Source of the DNA: Mycoavidus sp. B2-EB | GTDB taxonomy: Bacteria; Pseudomonadota; Gammaproteobacteria; Burkholderiales; Burkholderiaceae | DNA: 64,000 bases | Reading direction: 5' to 3' | Assembly: GCF_014218255.1 (NCBI RefSeq) | Contig: NZ_AP021872.1 | Coordinates: 1,798,001-1,862,000, forward strand | Shown: positions 18,292 to 25,530 of the stretch, piece by piece | Numbering within the stretch: position 1 is the stretch's first letter | How the letters are laid out: each line of letters opens with the position of its first letter | Translations under genes and position numbers: made by a program | The notes under the pieces: model-generated | Seen by the model: the letters and a program-made list of their open reading frames with translations, nothing else | Told to the model about the DNA's origin: nothing | Database searches by the model: none

Positions 18292-19431
18292 TCAAGCGCC
18301 TGCTTGGCCTAGCCTCCATTCGTTAAACCGTTCGATAATCGAGCTATGCTTATCCATCCAATACAAACCATCATTAAACAGGCCTTTTTTTAAATTGTCT
18401 GGGTACGTTGCGAGTAACGTTAGATACTTGGGATTAATATCGTTTTTTTTCAAAATACTGGGTTCCAACGCGGCCGGTTGAGTGGGTGCAATCCCATAGG
18501 GTATAAGGCGCGCTTGCCTCTCAGGATCCGTCGCAAACCGGATAAATTCTCGGCAAGCGTCAGCGTTAGGTGCTCCCCTTAAAATAGTCCAACTGTCATA
18601 TGCGTAAATGTGTTGATCCCAGGAGAATGTAACGGGTGCCCCCGCCTCCATGGCAGATATGACAGAAGTGGAAAAAGCCGGAATCAGATGCACTTCCCCG
18701 GCTTTTAATAGATGCTCAGCTTGCGGGTTATTCTGCCACCAGATAGAGATATGCGACTTAATTTTATCTAAGCTGCGAAATGCACGGTTAACTCCATCCG
18801 CACAAGAATACACTTCGCTAGGAGCCACGCCATCAGCCATCAGCGCTTCTTCAAGCGTATCGAACGGGATTTGACGTAGGCCGCGCAGGCCAGGAAATTT
18901 TTCCACGTTCCAAAAATCTCCCCACGTTCTCGGTATAGAACGGCCTTTAAAAATATCTGTCCGATAGGCCAATACTGTAGTGTAAACATTCTTCCCAACG
19001 CTATAGTTTGATAAAGCCTGCGGAATCATGTTTTTGACGACATTATCATTCATTAGCCCATGCGGTTCTAAATAGCCTAACTGACTAAGAATGGGGATTG
19101 CTCTGCTGCCTAAACACGCCATACTCCAGTGATACGTTTGCGTATTAACCATCGTTTTAATTTCTGCGATAGGCTCCACATTGGATGGAATGCCAGTTAC
19201 TTTAATACCTGTTTCTTCGGTAAAAGGTTCAAAAAGTATCTTGGTATAAGCGAGGTGGCTTTTCCCGCCCGAAGTGCGAATGACAATGTCTTGATCTTTA
19301 TGAGGAAGGCGTTTCTGAGCCGTTTTTCGAGAAGTCATAATGAACGGAATAGAAACTGCTGTTATCCCTACCGCCGCGACTGCCTTCATCAGGTTACGGC
19401 GGTTATTGTTAGGCTTATTTTGATCTTCCAT
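18292..19431 (-). CDS. ABC-type solute-binding protein, PotD-like, Tat signal (paralogue 1)
   Basis: A periplasmic binding protein of 379 residues. The N-terminus has a twin-Arg signal (NNRRNLMK followed by a hydrophobic stretch), suggesting Tat export. The mature part resembles the spermidine/putrescine-type family: TWGDFWNVEKFPGLRGLR, ALMADGV, HISIWWQNNPQAEHLL, GAPVTFSWDQ, PNADACREFI. It is the last member of a tandem array with the genes at 19564 and 22055. No permease of the matching type lies nearby. The ligand is unknown; polyamines are possible but unproven. It has no LysR gene of its own directly upstream. Confidence 0.88.
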   Translation of the reverse strand: MEDQNKPNNNRRNLMKAVAAVGITAVSIPFIMTSRKTAQKRLPHKDQDIVIRTSGGKSHLAYTKILFEPFTEETGIKVTGIPSNVEPIAEIKTMVNTQTYHWSMACLGSRAIPILSQLGYLEPHGLMNDNVVKNMIPQALSNYSVGKNVYTTVLAYRTDIFKGRSIPRTWGDFWNVEKFPGLRGLRQIPFDTLEEALMADGVAPSEVYSCADGVNRAFRSLDKIKSHISIWWQNNPQAEHLLKAGEVHLIPAFSTSVISAMEAGAPVTFSWDQHIYAYDSWTILRGAPNADACREFIRFATDPERQARLIPYGIAPTQPAALEPSILKKNDINPKYLTLLATYPDNLKKGLFNDGLYWMDKHSSIIERFNEWRLGQAGA

Positions 19432-19563
19432 TTACGTTCCTAATGTTGATGGAACAGGGTAAATTCCCACTTTATGCCTATTGGCTAGCGGATGATTTTT
19501 ACTTCACTAACTTACGTAAAGGTAAAGACAGCGGAAGTCAGCTCGAATCGGTTAAACGTTTAG

Positions 19564-20655
19564 CTAACTTAGCATCCACCGACTATAGCGCTCAATCACC
19601 GAGCTTTGATGGTTCATCCAGTATAAAGCGTTGCTAGGGAGACCTTTTTTGAGGTTGTCTGGATAAGTCGCAAGCAGCTTGGCATGCTTTAGATCAATAT
19701 AGCCTGGCTTTAAAACCTCCGGTTGGGTGGGCCCTATCCCGTACGGTGCAAGCAGTGCCTGCTGCCGTGGATGTGAGGCAAATTTGATGAATTCACGGCA
19801 AGCATCAACGTTAGGTGCGCCTTTTAGAATGGTCCAATTATCGTATCCATAGATATGCTGATCCCACGAAAATGTAACGGGTGCGCCAGCCTTAATCGCA
19901 GCTAGCACGCGGTCCGTAAAAGCCGGGATTAAATCGACTTCGCCAGATTTAAGAAGTTGTTCAGTTTCCGGGGCATTTTGGTACCAGACGGAGATATGAG
20001 ATTTAATTCTGTCCAGACTGCGAAAGGCACGATCGAGTTCACATGGGTAAACTTGACTCGGAGGAACGCCATCTGCCATAAGCGCTTGTTCGATGGTATC
20101 GAAGGGGCTTCTGCGCAGCCCGCGGCGGCCAGGAAAGTTATTGGTATCCCAAAAATCCTGCCATGTTCTTGGCGCTTGGCGCGCTTTAAAAGCATCCGTG
20201 CGATACGCAAGCACGATCGTAAATACGTTCGTCCCTACGCTGTAAGGTGACATGAATTGCGGCATAATGGTTGAGACCACGGGATCATGTTCAAGTCCAT
20301 GTGGCTCTAGATAAGCTGGACCCAAAAACTGGATCGCCCGATGGCTAAGACTTGCCATATTCCATGTGTAAGCTTTGGTTTCGACCATTGCCTTAACTTC
20401 TGCGGTGGGCTCGGCGTTGGATGGAATGCCGATCACTTCAATCCCAAATTTTTGCTTAAAAGGTTTGAATAGGATTTCTGTGTATGCCTGCTGAAGATAG
20501 CCGCCCGAAGTACGGATGACTATTTTTTGCTTAACACTTTCTTTACCCGCTCCCCTAGCAGAGGTAATGACAAAAGGCGAAGCTACCACTGCTGCGCTTA
20601 AAGCAACCATTTTTCTAACCGCTGCTCTACGTTTTTCGTTAGGTGGATGATTCAT
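19564..20655 (-). CDS. ABC-type solute-binding protein, PotD-like, Tat signal (paralogue 2)
   Basis: A 363-residue paralogue of the previous gene, with the same core motifs (TWQDFWDTNNFPGRRGLR, GVPPSQVYPCELDRAF, GAPVTFSWDQHIYGYDNWTILKG). The signal is KRRAAVRKMVALSAAVVA. It begins 9 bp after the stop of the LysR gene at 20665, so the regulator and binding protein are one operon. The two proteins differ mostly in the N-terminus and in the residues between the conserved motifs, which may change the ligand. Confidence 0.88.
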   Translation of the reverse strand: MNHPPNEKRRAAVRKMVALSAAVVASPFVITSARGAGKESVKQKIVIRTSGGYLQQAYTEILFKPFKQKFGIEVIGIPSNAEPTAEVKAMVETKAYTWNMASLSHRAIQFLGPAYLEPHGLEHDPVVSTIMPQFMSPYSVGTNVFTIVLAYRTDAFKARQAPRTWQDFWDTNNFPGRRGLRRSPFDTIEQALMADGVPPSQVYPCELDRAFRSLDRIKSHISVWYQNAPETEQLLKSGEVDLIPAFTDRVLAAIKAGAPVTFSWDQHIYGYDNWTILKGAPNVDACREFIKFASHPRQQALLAPYGIGPTQPEVLKPGYIDLKHAKLLATYPDNLKKGLPSNALYWMNHQSSVIERYSRWMLS

Positions 20656-20664
20656 CTGGAGTCC

Positions 20665-21600
20665 TCAATGTATTAGGCTATCACTAGCCTCTGGCTTAAG
20701 CTGTCTGAACATAGGTAATCTTGAAGAAAGCAATCTAAGCAATTGATTCGCTGCTGACGAAAGTGATTTGCCTCGTCTAACAATGAGGCTCAGCTCGGCT
20801 GAATTAAAAACTGGATGTTCGACTTCCAGCGCCACCAGCTTACCCGTTTTAATTTCCTCATACGCTGAAAATTCCGACATAAATATTCCACCCGAGCCCG
20901 TGCAAGCAAAGATTTTCCGGGCTACGGTTGAATTACTAACGAATACTGGAAGAGGCAGCTCAATTTTCTCGGAAAGAGCGGCTTTCTTTATTGAGGATGA
21001 AACAATATCTGTGGCAGCAGCTAATGAAAATGGATAGCTTATCGCTTCTGAAAAAGTGACCTTGCGCCGATCAGAGAGCGGATGAGTTTTATTGACCAAT
21101 AGCCTTAAAGGTAAAGGCTCGCTTGCGTAGCAACGAATATCCGGAAAATTAGAGCAACAATGAATTACGCCTATATGCACAATATCTTCAGCAACTAAGC
21201 TGACAATTTTATTAGACTCAAAAATTTCTTCGATATGAAGATGCACATTAGGGTATTGAAGGCGGAAATCATCAAATATGCTCATTAATGGAATCACAAA
21301 GGCAGTAGGCATAGCAAGATGAATATTGCCCCGTTGCTCCAGCTCTTGTAAGCGAACCATTAGAGTCTCTTCTAATTTATATTGGCCCCGATAGTATTCC
21401 ATTAATAATTCACCCGCCTCAGTCGGCGCCATCCCTCTAGGACGCCTCTCAAACAGTTTAGCGCCCAACTCCTGTTCTAATAGCTGAATCTGGCGGGTAA
21501 TGACAGAACAGTCCGTATTTAAATGATCTGCTGCTTTGCGGATTTTTCCTTGGGCATAAACCGCATGGAAATAAAGCAGTCGCTTCTGATTGATGACCAT
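20665..21600 (-). CDS. LysR-type transcriptional regulator (copy 1)
   Basis: A 311-residue LysR protein. The N-terminal winged helix-turn-helix has RLLYFHAVYAQGKIRKAADHLNTDCSVITRQIQLLEQELGAKLFERRPRGM, followed by a substrate-binding domain. It starts at ATG 21600 (MVINQKRL), matching its paralogue at 23139. The binding-protein gene follows 9 bp downstream on the same strand, unlike most LysR regulators, which are divergent from their target. It probably controls this array in response to a small molecule. Confidence 0.93.
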   Translation of the reverse strand: MVINQKRLLYFHAVYAQGKIRKAADHLNTDCSVITRQIQLLEQELGAKLFERRPRGMAPTEAGELLMEYYRGQYKLEETLMVRLQELEQRGNIHLAMPTAFVIPLMSIFDDFRLQYPNVHLHIEEIFESNKIVSLVAEDIVHIGVIHCCSNFPDIRCYASEPLPLRLLVNKTHPLSDRRKVTFSEAISYPFSLAAATDIVSSSIKKAALSEKIELPLPVFVSNSTVARKIFACTGSGGIFMSEFSAYEEIKTGKLVALEVEHPVFNSAELSLIVRRGKSLSSAANQLLRLLSSRLPMFRQLKPEASDSLIH

Positions 21601-21801
21601 CGTCCCCGTTCCTAAACTATTCCCGCTGCAGAAAATTATAGAGTAACCTCATACCGGCTAAGATTCGCTTTTTCTGCTTTGATGTTGTTAAATAAGTAGT
21701 AAATAATCTACCTTAAAAAAGAAAAAAGTAGTAGCTGATTAAATATACAGTGAGCAAAAGGTAACACTTCGATGGTACGCCTGTTGCTGGAAAAAACAGC
21801 G

Positions 21802-21909
21802 TTAAAGCTTGTCCGACCTATTCGATGAATATTTTTTCTTGGCCACACTAACTCGCATCAGAATCAGCTGATTGAAGAGCGAGCGCACCTTTGATACAGA
21901 ATGAGTCAT
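21802..21909 (-). CDS. Short ORF upstream of LysR copy 1, related to the one at 24317
   Basis: A 35-codon frame with a good ribosome site (AGAGAGGA) 6 bp before the ATG. Its leader, start region and 3' end align with the short ORF at 24317-24406, including GTATC, CTCG and the end AAAAAATATTC. One indel shifts the frame after codon 3. In the frame of the other copy it would have a stop in the middle, so this copy looks decayed. It lies about 200 bp upstream of the LysR gene. Function unknown. Confidence 0.4.
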   Translation of the reverse strand: MTHSVSKVRSLFNQLILMRVSVAKKKYSSNRSDKL

Positions 21910-21960
21910 GGCTAATCCTCTCTTAAGCAGCGGCATGTGCAAATACCGTTGCTTCTTTTA
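21865..21960 (-). promoter_or_regulatory. Conserved stem-loop leader of the short ORF (copy A)
   Basis: On the minus strand AAGCAACGG and CCGCTGCTT (about 21926-21955) form a near-perfect 9-bp stem just before the ribosome site. The same leader, also starting AAGCAACGG, precedes the short ORF at 24406. Conservation of leader plus start in both cassettes suggests regulation, for example binding of the LysR protein or an RNA switch; this is inference. Confidence 0.35.
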
Positions 21961-22054
21961 TGTACCCTAAACGCTAACGCTTAAAGGCTATGCTTGATGG
22001 GGAGGTTAAATGAATACTCAGATCTAGGAGATAAGAATGTACTAGTTACGGGTA

Positions 22055-23110
22055 TCAAACCAATAGCCAGTGGTTAAATCGTTGGATGATGTCATCTTGT
22101 TTAAGCCAATACGAAGCATCAATAAATAAACCTTTTTTAAGGTTATCTGGATGAGTTGGAAGACGCCTAACATATTTCGAATGAATATAATTTGACTTAA
22201 ACGCATCAGGGTGAGTAGGTCCAATTCCGTATGGCGCGAGTAGCGCTTGCCGCTTTGGGTGACAGGCAAACCGAATAAATTTTCGGCAGGCATCGGCATT
22301 AGGGCTTCCTTTCAAAATTGCCCAATTGTGACATCCGTAAAGGTGCTGTTCCCATGAAATTGCAACCGGCGCACCAGCATCTATGGCAGCCTGCGCCCAA
22401 ATACTAAAAACCGGAATTAAATCAACTTCACGGGTTTTCAGCAAATGTTCGGTCTGTGGTCCGCTCCCTCCCCACCAGACTGAGACATGGGGTTTAATCG
22501 TATCAAGGCTACTAAGCGCTCTATCAAGATTACACGGATAAATTTTCTCTAGCGGAACACCATCCGCCATTAATGCAATTTCAATCGTGTCATAAGGAAG
22601 CTTACGTAGACTGCGACGGCCAGGGAATCTTTCTACATCCCAAAAATCTTTCCATGATTGAGGTGCTTGATGCCTTTTAAAAGCATCTGTCCTATAGGCA
22701 AGTACAGTCGCATATGCATTCGTGCCCACTCCGTATGCGGATCTAAAATGAGGTGGAATCGATGAAACAATAGGATCATCTTCAAGCTCGTGCTTTTCCA
22801 GATAAACCTTGTCTGTTGTCATAAATAGAACCGCCCGATGACTGATCGCCACCATATCCCATAGATAACACTTACTCTCAACCATCGTCCGAATCTGCGC
22901 AGTCGGTTCTGCATCAGACTGGATGCTGATCACTCCAATACCCGTCTCTTGCGTAAAAGGCTTGTATAAAATGTCTTGGTATATTTTTGCATAAATTCCA
23001 CCAGGATCACGTATGATGATCTGTCGCGAAGCCGCCCGGGAAGGCGTCCAGACAAAAGGGGCGGTTGCAGCAACGGCTAGTGCCTTAATGGTTGTGCGGC
23101 GAGTAATCAA
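22055..23110 (-). CDS. ABC-type solute-binding protein, PotD-like (paralogue 3)
   Basis: A 351-residue paralogue of the genes at 18292 and 19564. The signal starts MITRRTTIKALAVAATAPF. The core is SWKDFWDVERFPGRRSLRK, YDTIEIALMADGV, HVSVWWGGSG, GAPVAISWEQHLYG and PNADACRKFIRFACHPKRQALLAPYGIGP. It lies 28 bp after the LysR gene at 23139 on the same strand. Differences around WWGGSGPQ and the shorter N-terminus suggest that the copies have diverged in ligand or partner. Confidence 0.88.
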   Translation of the reverse strand: MITRRTTIKALAVAATAPFVWTPSRAASRQIIIRDPGGIYAKIYQDILYKPFTQETGIGVISIQSDAEPTAQIRTMVESKCYLWDMVAISHRAVLFMTTDKVYLEKHELEDDPIVSSIPPHFRSAYGVGTNAYATVLAYRTDAFKRHQAPQSWKDFWDVERFPGRRSLRKLPYDTIEIALMADGVPLEKIYPCNLDRALSSLDTIKPHVSVWWGGSGPQTEHLLKTREVDLIPVFSIWAQAAIDAGAPVAISWEQHLYGCHNWAILKGSPNADACRKFIRFACHPKRQALLAPYGIGPTHPDAFKSNYIHSKYVRRLPTHPDNLKKGLFIDASYWLKQDDIIQRFNHWLLV

Positions 23111-23138
23111 AAAGGGGCTCCACAGTTATTAAGTCTCA

Positions 23139-24074
23139 TTAATGAGCGCTCAGGCCCTTAGCCGTCTGCGCGCAAACCCGTAGTTTTGCTTCGAGCGTTC
23201 TAAGTAGTTGATTCATTGCCGGAAGAAATGGCTTATTCCTTTTGACAACCAAACAGAGTTGGAACGCTTGAAAACATTGGTGATCTATTTCAAGTGCCAC
23301 CAGCTGACCGGTTTTAATTTCTTGGGCCGCAGCAAGTGCTGACATCAACGTTCCGCCGTTATCAATACTAGAAAATTTTTTCCGAGCAGAGATAGAGTCA
23401 CTGATAAATGCCGGAGTGAGTTGGATGTTCTCCAAGCGTTCGGCTTCCCGAATCATATGCCACAAATTAGATGTAGGGGACGGCAACGCCAGCGGGTAAC
23501 GTGCTGCATCCGAGAAAGTAACCTTTTTCTGGACCGCCAGCGGGTGCTTATGACTTACCACTAAACACATAGGAAGCGACGCACAAACACTGTATTTAAT
23601 ATTTTGGTTATTTAGAGAATAATGGCTCATAATTCCTATATGTGCCTCATCCGCGATGACCTCAGCCACTGCTTGATCGGCTGTACTGGTTTCTGTAATC
23701 GAAATATTTAAACCAGAATGCTCTTTACAGAAATCACTGAGCACACTCTCTACTAGAAGCTCACCATACGCTTTGAGCACAACAATACGAATTGCTCCTC
23801 GCTTCATTCCGCGCAATTCCTGTAAACCTGTCTCAAAAGCTTGCTGGGCATTCTGAGTATAGCGGTAGTAATCAAGCAATAATGCCCCCACCTCCGTTAA
23901 TGTCATACCTCGAGAATGCCGCTCGAATAACTTTTCACCTATCTCTTCTTCTAATAGCGCAATCTGGCGAGTGATGACAGAACAATCAATATCTAAATAA
24001 TCTGCGGCTTTGCGGATTTTTCCATTGGTGTGCACCGCATAGAAATAGCGCAGTCTTTTTTGATTAATGATCAT
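23139..24074 (-). CDS. LysR-type transcriptional regulator (copy 2)
   Basis: A 311-residue paralogue of the LysR protein at 20665. I chose ATG 24074 (MIINQKRLRYFYAVHTNG), which matches the other copy, over the longer TTG start at 24089. The helix-turn-helix contains KIRKAADYLDIDCSVITRQIALLEEEIGEKLFERHSRGM. It is followed by the binding-protein gene after 28 bp. The pair repeats the layout of the 19564/20665 pair, so the cassette was duplicated. Confidence 0.93.
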   Translation of the reverse strand: MIINQKRLRYFYAVHTNGKIRKAADYLDIDCSVITRQIALLEEEIGEKLFERHSRGMTLTEVGALLLDYYRYTQNAQQAFETGLQELRGMKRGAIRIVVLKAYGELLVESVLSDFCKEHSGLNISITETSTADQAVAEVIADEAHIGIMSHYSLNNQNIKYSVCASLPMCLVVSHKHPLAVQKKVTFSDAARYPLALPSPTSNLWHMIREAERLENIQLTPAFISDSISARKKFSSIDNGGTLMSALAAAQEIKTGQLVALEIDHQCFQAFQLCLVVKRNKPFLPAMNQLLRTLEAKLRVCAQTAKGLSAH

Positions 24075-24316
24075 CTTCTTTGCCCCCAAAGCACCCTTAT
24101 TTAGTTTAAAAAATTATAGAGTGAAACCAAAAAAACCAGGATTGCTTATTTATTTCTTAACATTGCCAAATGAGCAACAAACAATCTACTCTAAGCAGCG
24201 GAAACCTACAACCCGTTTTAATGATAGAGTGGTTCACAAACCACACTTTAAGAGTTTACTCACCGAATATAGCCGCCGCCCTTCTATTGAAAAAACAACG
24301 ATAAAACTAGGTGTTC

Positions 24317-24406
24317 CTATTTGACGAATATCTTTTTCCGACCATACTGCGGCGCTGGAGTCATTTTATTGGAGACGAGTACATCTTCGATACAGCATAA
24401 CTCCAT
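24317..24406 (-). CDS. Short ORF (29 codons) upstream of LysR copy 2
   Basis: A frame from ATG 24406 encoding MELCCIEDVL and ending GRKKIFVK, preceded by a strong ribosome site (AGGGAGGG). The frame can be extended to 24511 but the shared leader and ribosome site point to 24406. The same leader and related 3' end recur at 21802-21909. Two adjacent Cys and a basic end make a small signalling or modified peptide conceivable, but no modification enzyme is nearby. It could also be a regulatory upstream ORF. Confidence 0.45.
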   Translation of the reverse strand: MELCCIEDVLVSNKMTPAPQYGRKKIFVK

Positions 24407-24574
24407 GACAATCCCTCCCTTTAAGCAATCGTATTTTTCATGCCGTTGCTTTTTTAGAAGTGCCCTCTCGATAGAATTCTGAAAACACTTAGGGGGTGCT
24501 TTGAATAGCAAGGGTCAAATAAATTTTAGGTTCGTGAGATCTGCAAATAGATGCAACCACTGCTGAGAACAGTA

Positions 24575-24817
24575 TTATGCCCTCGCTTGACCTAGCATCC
24601 ATTCATTAAAACGTAGGATCATGCTATTTTGATTTTTAAGCCAATAAGTAGCATCAACGTGCCGCCCTTTTTCAAGATTCGTGGGATAGCTTGTAAGATG
24701 CATAGCCTGCTTAGGTTTAATATAATTGAAGGCGTCTCGCTGTATTGGGCCAATCGCGTATTCTGCAAGCAATGCCTGTCGCTTTGGGTCTGAAGCAAAT
24801 TTGATAAATTCACGGAA
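24575..24817 (-). pseudogene. C-terminal fragment of a fourth PotD-like binding protein
   Basis: About 80 residues equivalent to the last quarter of the three neighbouring paralogues (REFIKFASDPKRQALLAEYAIGPIQRD, then YPTNLEKG, ATYWL, RFNEWMLGQARA). The homology ends abruptly at about 24817, where the unrelated transporter frame starts on the other strand. The gene therefore lost its first three quarters by deletion or rearrangement. Confidence 0.88.
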
Positions 24818-25324
24818 ATGGGGAGACTCAGACTTTTATTCAGGTGCGCTCACTGGCAAAGGCTAATTAATAAGAGAGTTGGCATTATCCCGTTGCCGGC
24901 ATATTTCCTTATCCTTGCTTGCCTAGGAATTCTGCTAGCCCTAAAAGAAATCTCTGGCGATATTTCAATCATGATCGCGCTGCTTGCCGCATGCGGCTTT
25001 ACCTGTGCCGCAATAGGTGAGCGCATTCCGGTTCTACGACAAATAGGCGGGCCGGTTATCGTAAGCATCCTCCTTCCAGCCTGTCTGGCCCATTACAAAA
25101 TCTTACCTAGTGAATTAATTACGGTAATCAGCGACTTTTGGCACTCGACTAAATTTGTCTATTTATTTAGTGCTTGTGTCATCGTTGGCAGCATCCTTAG
25201 CATGAATCGCCAGGCGCTTATCACTGGCATCGTCAAGATTTTTATTCCCCTTGCCGCAGGCTCTGTCCTAGAAAAATCCCGATTTTGCATAGCGAATCCC
25301 TCCTTCCGAAAATTTTTTATATAA
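24818..25324 (+). pseudogene. Truncated 2-hydroxycarboxylate transporter (CitS/MaeN family)
   Basis: The frame encodes the N-terminal third of a 2HCT-family carrier: RVGIIPLPAYFLIL, EISGDISIMIALLAACGFTCAAIGERIPVLRQIGGPVI, VGSILSMNRQALITGIVKIFIPLAAGSV, with several membrane spans. Family members have about 430-450 residues and use sodium or protons to take up citrate or malate. Homology stops at about 25265 and is replaced by a short unrelated tail. The upstream edge touches the binding-protein fragment. The product cannot be a working carrier. Confidence 0.82.

Positions 25325-25454: not shown

Positions 25455-25530
<76 letters not shown>

What the first reader, a model, noticed from the sequence alone, without database searches (positions are those of the whole stretch)
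21802..24440. Pair of short ORFs with a conserved stem-loop leader
Upstream of each LysR gene lies a short ORF with strong ribosome site and a leader beginning AAGCAACGG that can form a stem. The two copies align through leader, start and 3' end (GRKKIFVK in the intact copy), so they are part of the duplicated cassette. The copy at 24317 is open; the one at 21802 has an indel. A peptide with two adjacent Cys or a regulatory leader ORF are both possible. This is the best candidate in the window for something undescribed.
Basis: partly seen in the sequence, partly recalled or inferred. Interest (0 to 1): 0.65.

Follow-up and report, generated by a model that had tools for sequence, protein, structure and literature searches.

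The report
Leftover RNA switch of citrate transporter
What looked like two tiny genes with a stem-loop is, read on the other strand, a folded RNA with a stop signal at the front of a citrate/malate-type transporter gene; here that transporter has decayed or gone, while working-looking copies survive elsewhere in the same bacterial genus.

Summary
The repeated leader and short ORF exist, but the ORF is not the functional feature. It is the antisense of a conserved RNA on the + strand. In related loci this RNA lies just upstream of a 2HCT (PF03390, CitS/MleP-type) transporter gene, divergent from LysR-SBP. It has a stem-in-stem (P1/P2), a linker and an intrinsic-terminator hairpin with a T-run (P3), 95-102 nt before the ATG in 4 of 7 LysR-linked intact 2HCT genes. 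Ten copies were found, all in the window's genus (3 genomes); the other 58 genomes gave one chance-like hit. On 9 aligned copies, 89.7% of cells stay paired; a tree-aware null gives 78.1% (0 of 1000 as high). RNAalifold: -17.9 kcal/mol on the 2HCT strand, -4.2 on the LysR strand. The ORF shows no codon-level signal (6 of 9 copies testable). No Rfam match. In the window both copies are relics: copy a's 2HCT is truncated (24800-25270) and split by an SBP fragment; copy b's is gone. A congener keeps the intact gene at the same tRNA-Phe site. Most likely an attenuator-like leader; no self-contained antiterminator was found, so a trans factor or a free small RNA remains open.

The parts
24326..24458 (+). 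Copy a of the structured RNA leader (model R2 match): P1 24357-24361/24400-24404, P2 24368-24375/24384-24391, linker, P3 hairpin 24423-24451
   Evidence: R2 126.1 bits, E 3.6e-23 (the copy is in the model); consensus structure and covariation; window coordinates of the helices read from the sequence
24450..24455 (+). T-run after P3: intrinsic-terminator tail on the + strand
   Evidence: sequence; hairpin fold -8.1 kcal/mol on the + strand
24343..24348 (+). Candidate -10 hexamer CATACT (CAYACT in 10 of 10 copies), with TTGACG 16 nt upstream in this copy
   Evidence: promoter role is inference
21827..21961 (+). Copy b of the structured RNA leader: P2 21871-21878/21888-21895, P3 21925-21954, T-rich tail 21953-21959
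   Evidence: R2 97.3 bits, E 3e-17 (the copy is in the model); fold -13.3 kcal/mol
24317..24406 (-).
21802..21909 (-).
24547..24549 (+). Remnant of the 2HCT start codon (reads ATA), followed by about 9 alignable codons
   Evidence: alignment with G002c and G000c
24575..24814 (-). Inserted 3' fragment of an SBP gene (residues 276-350 match at 24593-24814, 57% identity to the window's SBP) that separates the leader from the 2HCT remnant
   Evidence: tblastn; end from the ORF
24800..25270 (+). Truncated 2HCT transporter remnant (residues 19-175, 74.5% identical to the intact G002c protein; ORF 24818-25324)
   Evidence: tblastn, PF03390 113.6 bits, 65% to the G001 protein at the syntenic site
23139..24077 (-). 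LysR-family regulator a, divergent from the leader
   Evidence: PF00126 and PF03466
20665..21600 (-). LysR-family regulator b
   Evidence: PF00126 and PF03466
22055..23110 (-). Solute-binding protein (SBP_bac_8, distantly PotD-like) downstream of LysR a; its 3' end abuts the leader of copy b where the 2HCT gene would begin
25455..25530 (+). tRNA-Phe (GAA), synteny marker: 2HCT - tRNA-Phe - queC-like gene also in G001 (L048 3499-4878, 4984-5059, 5129 on)
   Evidence: the name queC is recalled from the protein sequence, not from a call

Best explanation
The feature is a conserved, structured 5' leader RNA, about 95-100 nt from a candidate start at P1 to a terminator, on the + strand. It belongs to a 2HCT citrate/malate-type transporter gene divergent from a LysR-SBP pair. 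Proposed working: RNA polymerase starts behind a CAYACT -10 box (inferred), makes the P1/P2 stem with its conserved internal loop, and tends to stop at the P3 hairpin plus T-run. Only read-through transcripts reach the transporter RBS about 100 nt further on. What tips the balance (a trans-acting protein, RNA or metabolite binding P1/P2, or an organic acid signal through LysR at the promoter) is unknown. In this window both copies are relics: copy a's transporter is truncated and interrupted, copy b's is lost. The 'short ORF' is simply the complementary strand.
For: Shown: model R2 (built from 9 copies) finds 10 copies in 61 genomes, all in the window's genus and all beside these LysR genes; the tenth, G001f, was not in the model (E 0.0025, 0.00037). 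Of 20 near-intact 2HCT genes of the genus examined, 7 are divergent from such a LysR; 6 of the 7 have an R2 match, and 4 of 7 have a hairpin of -8.8 to -17.8 kcal/mol plus T-run 95-102 nt before the ATG. In the -130 to -70 zone of the 13 others, 3 have only weak hairpins (-2.5 to -5.4) and 10 none. RNAalifold on its own predicts P1+P2+P3 on the 2HCT strand: -17.9 kcal/mol, z -16.6 against 300 column shuffles; LysR strand -4.2, z -2.1; P1/P2 alone -7.2 against 0.0. 89.7% of 214 cells paired, 6 of 24 pairs changed on both sides, slid controls 34-54% paired. Tree-aware null: paired 0.897 vs 0.781, covariation 0.315 vs 0.156, each 0 of 1000 as high; P2 0 of 400. Intact 2HCT at the same tRNA-Phe site in G001. 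Start-codon region and shared 5'UTR kept in both window copies.
Against: No part of the leader pairs with the 5' arm of P3 better than shuffled leader does (216-494 of 500 shuffles at least as good, 9 of 9 copies), so it is not a self-contained riboswitch-type attenuator. Two intact LysR-linked 2HCT genes with an R2 match lack the terminator (G001g, G001f) and a third (G001c) has no R2 match at all. Copy G002a keeps P1/P2 with no 2HCT gene next to it. The excess of G-U over A-C cells, which would fix the strand, is not significant under the tree null (29 vs 12; 241 of 1000 as large), and the count of further pair types is at the shuffled mean (20 vs 20.0); the strand rests on the T-run, gene orientation and folding energies. 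In 2 of 9 copies (G001g, G002a) the hairpin folds better on the LysR strand. -35 boxes are weak and the consensus scan found no + strand promoter in the two intact loci scanned. The loose 400-nt scan also gave hairpins of -7 to -16 kcal/mol elsewhere upstream of some other 2HCT genes. Linker-RBS pairing is at chance level (5 of 5 copies tested). No expression data.
Confidence: 0.62

Rival explanations
1. The P1-P2-linker-P3 unit is a free-standing trans-acting small RNA of about 100 nt, made from its own promoter between LysR and 2HCT; the transporter has another promoter or is reached only by leakage.
For: Compact terminated unit, C/U-rich linker before the terminator in most copies, no antiterminator pairing, P1/P2 kept in a copy without a 2HCT gene, Hfq encoded in the genome (104 bits).
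Against: The linker is no more complementary to the cis 2HCT RBS than shuffled linkers (5 of 5 copies tested); no trans target was sought genome-wide; the 95-102 nt spacing to the 2HCT ATG fits a leader; the consensus scan found no + strand promoter between terminator and ATG in the two loci scanned, though it found none upstream of P1 either.
Confidence: 0.22
2. The dyads P1/P2 are DNA operator sites for the LysR protein, and only P3 is an RNA feature (a terminator).
For: The element travels with LysR genes; the G-U versus A-C asymmetry is not significant under the tree null.
Against: P2 lies downstream of the candidate -10 and includes G-U states (UG 5 of 9 and GU 5 of 9 at two pairs); a separate dyad nearer the LysR promoter (ACTG-N10-CAGT, seen in G000c and G000i; likeness to a LysR box is recalled) is a better operator candidate.
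Confidence: 0.1
3. The - strand ORF is a translated peptide (ME.CCI[KE]G...) such as a leader peptide or modified peptide.
For: Five of 9 copies have an in-frame ATG after a purine-rich stretch; the Cys-Cys codons vary only at synonymous positions in the copies that keep both; the ORF stays open in copy a.
Against: pN/pS no lower than in other frames and third positions not more variable (6 of 9 copies); in-frame start lost in 3 of 9 and TTG in 1; lengths 20-76 aa; the roughly 240 nt between ORF and LysR contain a conserved TATAAT-like box near LysR, so the ORF is probably outside the LysR mRNA.
Confidence: 0.04
4. A decaying duplication with no current function anywhere; apparent structure is inherited by descent.
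For: All copies are paralogues or orthologues within one genus; several are next to broken or missing 2HCT genes.
Against: The tree-aware null is exceeded for pairing and covariation, and 4 intact transporter genes keep the terminator. For the two window copies alone this reading is plausible.
Confidence: 0.1

Closest known systems
Transcription attenuators / premature-terminator leaders (surveyed in PMC2965389; I saw the start of its abstract in a listing and two passages)
   Same: Structured 5' leader followed by an intrinsic terminator upstream of a metabolic or transport gene; fast-evolving, lineage-specific sensing part.
   Different: No mutually exclusive antiterminator helix found; a leader peptide on the + strand was not tested systematically; sensing partner unknown.
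Riboswitches and other Rfam cis-regulatory RNAs
   Same: Stem with conserved internal-loop nucleotides ahead of a terminator.
   Different: No Rfam match but tRNAs in the window at gathering scores and none over the leaders of 4 loci at E up to 5; found in one genus only.
2HCT transporter genes (CitS, MleP, CitP) with a regulator nearby
   Same: A 2HCT gene beside a regulator gene; mleR, a LysR-type regulator next to mleP, is recalled, not tested.
   Different: Here LysR is divergent and usually paired with an orphan solute-binding protein, and the module is multiplied; two intact proteins score below NCBI's curated cut-offs for ccs and CitS.
Cysteine-rich attenuation leader peptides (recalled: poly-Cys uORFs of actinobacteria)
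   Same: Adjacent Cys codons in a short ORF upstream of a gene.
   Different: No frame conservation; the Cys codons are antisense to an RNA internal loop.

Membership tests
Intrinsic (Rho-independent) terminator | Stable hairpin followed directly by a U-run on the transcribed strand | tested here: met
   2HCT-strand folds -17.8, -9.7, -16.8, -14.0, -8.8, -8.1, -13.3 kcal/mol for 7 of 9 copies, with T-rich tails; weak (-1.2, -2.9) in G001g and G002a; the tenth copy, G001f, has none in the -130 to -70 zone
Transcription attenuator | Terminator inside the 5' leader of the regulated gene, same strand | tested here: met
   95-102 nt before the 2HCT ATG in 4 of 7 LysR-linked intact genes; that the region is transcribed is not shown
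Transcription attenuator | Alternative antiterminator pairing with the terminator arm | tested here: not met
   216-494 of 500 shuffled leaders pair at least as well, 9 of 9 copies
Transcription attenuator | Conditional read-through | not testable with these tools
   needs expression data
Known riboswitch or RNA family | Match to an Rfam covariance model | tested here: not met
   only tRNAs in the window; no match over the leaders of L077, L078, L089, L093
2HCT transporter (neighbour gene) | PF03390 above the gathering score | tested here: met
   453.6 and 457.1 bits for two intact relatives, 113.6 for the window remnant; cut-off 26.2
CitS / ccs equivalog | NCBIfam curated cut-off | tested here: not met
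   428-431 of 549 bits for ccs, 227-235 of 600 for CitS in the two intact proteins scanned
Protein-coding short ORF | Codon-level purifying selection | tested here: not met
   pN/pS 0.51, other frames 0.51-0.69; shuffles 309 of 1000 (6 of 9 copies)
Structured RNA | Covariation beyond phylogeny | tested here: met
   0 of 1000 tree-aware simulations reach the observed pairing or covariation score; 18 of 1000 reach the number of pairs changed on both sides
Trans-acting sRNA | Independent transcript acting on targets | not testable with these tools
   RBS complementarity tested only in cis and not above chance in 5 of 5 copies tested

The most novel reading that the evidence does not exclude
A new, genus-restricted RNA sensor (P1/P2 with conserved internal loop) that reads a metabolite or a factor tied to the fungal host's organic acids and gates part of an expanded set of 2HCT transporters, multiplied together with its LysR-SBP module and also persisting as a free small RNA after the transporter is lost.
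Probability: 0.15. Interest if true: 0.65.

Novelty: new member of a known kind. Interest (0 to 1): 0.4.

Why it matters
It turns a 'mystery peptide' into a testable regulatory RNA. It also points to organic-acid uptake as a regulated, duplicated trait in this lineage: near-full-length 2HCT genes number 7, 9 and 15 (one of the 15 with an internal stop) in the three genomes of the genus, against at most 2 matches in any of the other 58 genomes searched. [quoted passage not shown] if the window's genus is Mycoavidus (recalled, not shown by any search), this expansion bears directly on what the symbiont takes from its fungal host.

Tried and rejected
Short ORF as peptide: codon test negative. Hairpin as part of the LysR mRNA: its fold is stronger on the other strand in 7 of 9 copies and the T-run is there, and the LysR promoter-like box lies downstream of the ORF. 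Self-contained antiterminator: none. Linker as anti-Shine-Dalgarno for the 2HCT RBS: duplexes no better than shuffled (5 copies tested). A second conserved hairpin between P3 and the ATG: weak (alifold -3.0). Element elsewhere: R1 in 21 genomes and R2 in 61 genomes gave no convincing match outside the genus (best outsider R1 E 0.11, R2 E 0.15; the R2 search used stricter filters). G-U/A-C strand asymmetry: suggestive by raw count (26 vs 12; 29 vs 12 with the longer P3) but not significant under the tree null. Scan of genome contigs with LysR found no relative; with 2HCT it found 7 loci in other genera, none with an R2 match. The consensus terminator scan of the two window regions did not list the hairpins, probably because of its loop and stem rules. 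The first terminator scan reported only the best hit per gene, so I repeated it for the -130 to -70 zone. A blastn comparison printed nothing (probably unsupported gap costs) and was redone with MAFFT. Eleven of the 31 near-full-length 2HCT genes were not scanned for terminators; the whole-genome R2 search covers them. Papers searched (capped listings, titles and starts of abstracts); nothing listed described a leader RNA for 2HCT genes or an RNA element in Mycoavidus, which is no proof of absence. I opened only PMC5877345 and PMC2965389, as passages.
Full report
What was claimed and what is there. Both are present at the stated places on the - strand. The window lies at G000:C1:1798001-1862000 of a 1.877-Mb single-contig genome; two other genomes searched share its genus, G001 and G002. 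From memory this looks like Mycoavidus, an endosymbiont of Mortierella-type fungi, but no call names it.

Family of copies. LysR paralogues were found in all three genomes of the genus. I took 28 upstream regions and compared them. A covariance model (R1) built from seven leader+ORF blocks found nine convincing copies in the genus, every one upstream of such a LysR gene (a partial one in G000i). The other hits were three partial, self-complementary hits on the opposite strand of known copies and three weak hits (E 0.11-0.62) in two other genera. A later model (R2, from nine copies) found the same nine and a tenth, G001f, at E 0.0025 or 0.00037.

The turn. The aligned copies are also conserved beyond the leader, and on the opposite strand this conserved stretch contains an RBS and a start codon. 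The gene is a 459-aa 2HCT-family transporter, PF03390 at 453.6 bits. The arrangement in intact loci is: SBP and LysR on one strand, then the intergenic region, then 2HCT on the other strand. The leader is therefore in the 5' region of the 2HCT gene. Read on that strand the hairpin is followed by a run of T, and its fold is more stable than on the LysR strand in 7 of 9 copies.

Structure. On the 2HCT strand the nine-copy alignment A4 folds, without being told, into a 5-bp P1 enclosing an 8-bp P2, plus the terminator stem P3. Consensus energy is -17.9 kcal/mol (z -16.6 against 300 column shuffles) against -4.2 (z -2.1) on the LysR strand. With the structure fixed, 89.7% of 214 cells pair, 6 of 24 pairs change on both sides, and partner slides of 1-3 columns drop pairing to 34-54%; the number of further pair types is no higher than in shuffles (20 vs 20.0). 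Because the copies are related, I also simulated columns along the inferred tree with the same number of changes per column: none of 1000 simulations reached the observed pairing (0.897; null 0.781) or covariation (0.315; null 0.156); the number of pairs changed on both sides was reached by 18 of 1000. P2 is the strongest helix (0 of 400); P1 and P3 were reached in 11 and 4 of 400 for pairing and 7 and 10 of 400 for covariation. The excess of G-U over A-C cells, which would fix the strand independently, was reached by 241 of 1000 simulations, so the strand assignment depends on the T-run, gene orientation and energies.

The short ORF. In six of nine copies (G000b, G001d and G001g left out because of indels) the ORF frame has pN/pS 0.51; the other five frames give 0.51-0.69. 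Variable columns by codon position are 12, 10 and 12 of 17, and 309 of 1000 column shuffles give an equal or lower ratio. The in-frame start is lost in three copies and TTG in one. The Cys-Cys codons correspond to the unpaired RCARCA segment between P2 and P1, kept in 8 of 9 copies. In favour of a peptide, the two Cys codons vary only at synonymous positions where both are kept, but two codons are not a test.

Distance and specificity. Of the 31 near-full-length 2HCT genes of the genus listed, I examined 20; 7 of these are divergent from this LysR family. Four of the seven have a hairpin (-8.8 to -17.8 kcal/mol) plus T-run 95-102 nt before the ATG. Among the 13 others, the -130 to -70 zone holds a weak hairpin in 3 (-2.5 to -5.4) and none in 10; further upstream the loose scan does find hairpins of -7 to -16 in several of them. 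Of the three exceptions among the seven, G001g has a decayed hairpin, G001f keeps the CATACT box and only a weak R2 match, and G001c has no R2 match. The eleven genes not scanned are covered by the whole-genome R2 search, which found nothing near them. CAYACT is found just upstream of P1 in 10 of 10 copies and 5 of its 6 columns are invariant in the nine-copy alignment; I read it as the -10 box, which would put the RNA's 5' end at P1. This is inference: the -35 matches are weak, and the consensus scan called no + strand promoter in the two intact loci scanned.

What happened in the window. Copy a keeps the leader and the 5' region up to a start codon now reading ATA (24547-24549), then an SBP 3' fragment on the other strand (24575-24814), then a 2HCT remnant covering residues 19-175 (24800-25270). 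Downstream are tRNA-Phe and a queC-like gene. In G001 the same order, with an intact 2HCT gene, is found at L048, and the remnant is 65% identical to that protein. Copy b keeps the leader and an ATG with a stop as third codon, and then the adjacent SBP gene; its 2HCT gene is gone. Both window copies are thus relics. In the same genome, G000c (L041/L078) has leader, LysR and an intact 2HCT gene; G000i (L045) has leader, a partial LysR match and a broken 2HCT gene.

Mechanism. I favour an attenuator-like leader: a terminator in the 5' leader of a transporter gene preceded by a conserved structured domain. Shown: position, structure, terminator anatomy, restriction to the genus within the genomes searched. 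Inferred: promoter, transcription of the strand, conditional read-through, sensing by P1/P2. Against a classical switch: no part of the leader pairs with the terminator arm better than shuffled sequence in 9 of 9 copies. This leaves a trans-acting factor, or a free small RNA, as open readings; Hfq is encoded in the genome, but linker complementarity to the transporter RBS is at chance level in the 5 copies tested.

Known or new. No Rfam family matches. The literature searches (capped listings) showed no such leader. It is a new member of a known kind: a lineage-specific structured leader with an intrinsic terminator. Its transporter context, a multiplied 2HCT family, is the more interesting biological lead.

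Noticed in passing
G000, G001, G002: 2HCT (citrate/malate-type) transporter genes are strongly multiplied in this genus: 13, 10 and 22 tblastn matches (7, 9 and 15 near full length, one of the 15 with an internal stop) against at most 2 in any of the other 58 genomes searched.
   Followed up: partly
window 18292-24077: LysR-SBP pairs are repeated; orphan solute-binding proteins (SBP_bac_8, distantly PotD-like) sit beside LysR and a 2HCT secondary transporter, an unusual partnership.
   Followed up: partly
window 24575-24814: SBP 3' fragment inserted inside the decayed 2HCT gene, pointing to recombination between neighbouring cassettes.
   Followed up: yes
L089 3036-3112 and 3679-3827 (-): Group II intron RNA matches (RF00029, RF02012) downstream of the 2HCT gene in G002.
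   Followed up: no
[quoted passage not shown]
   Followed up: partly
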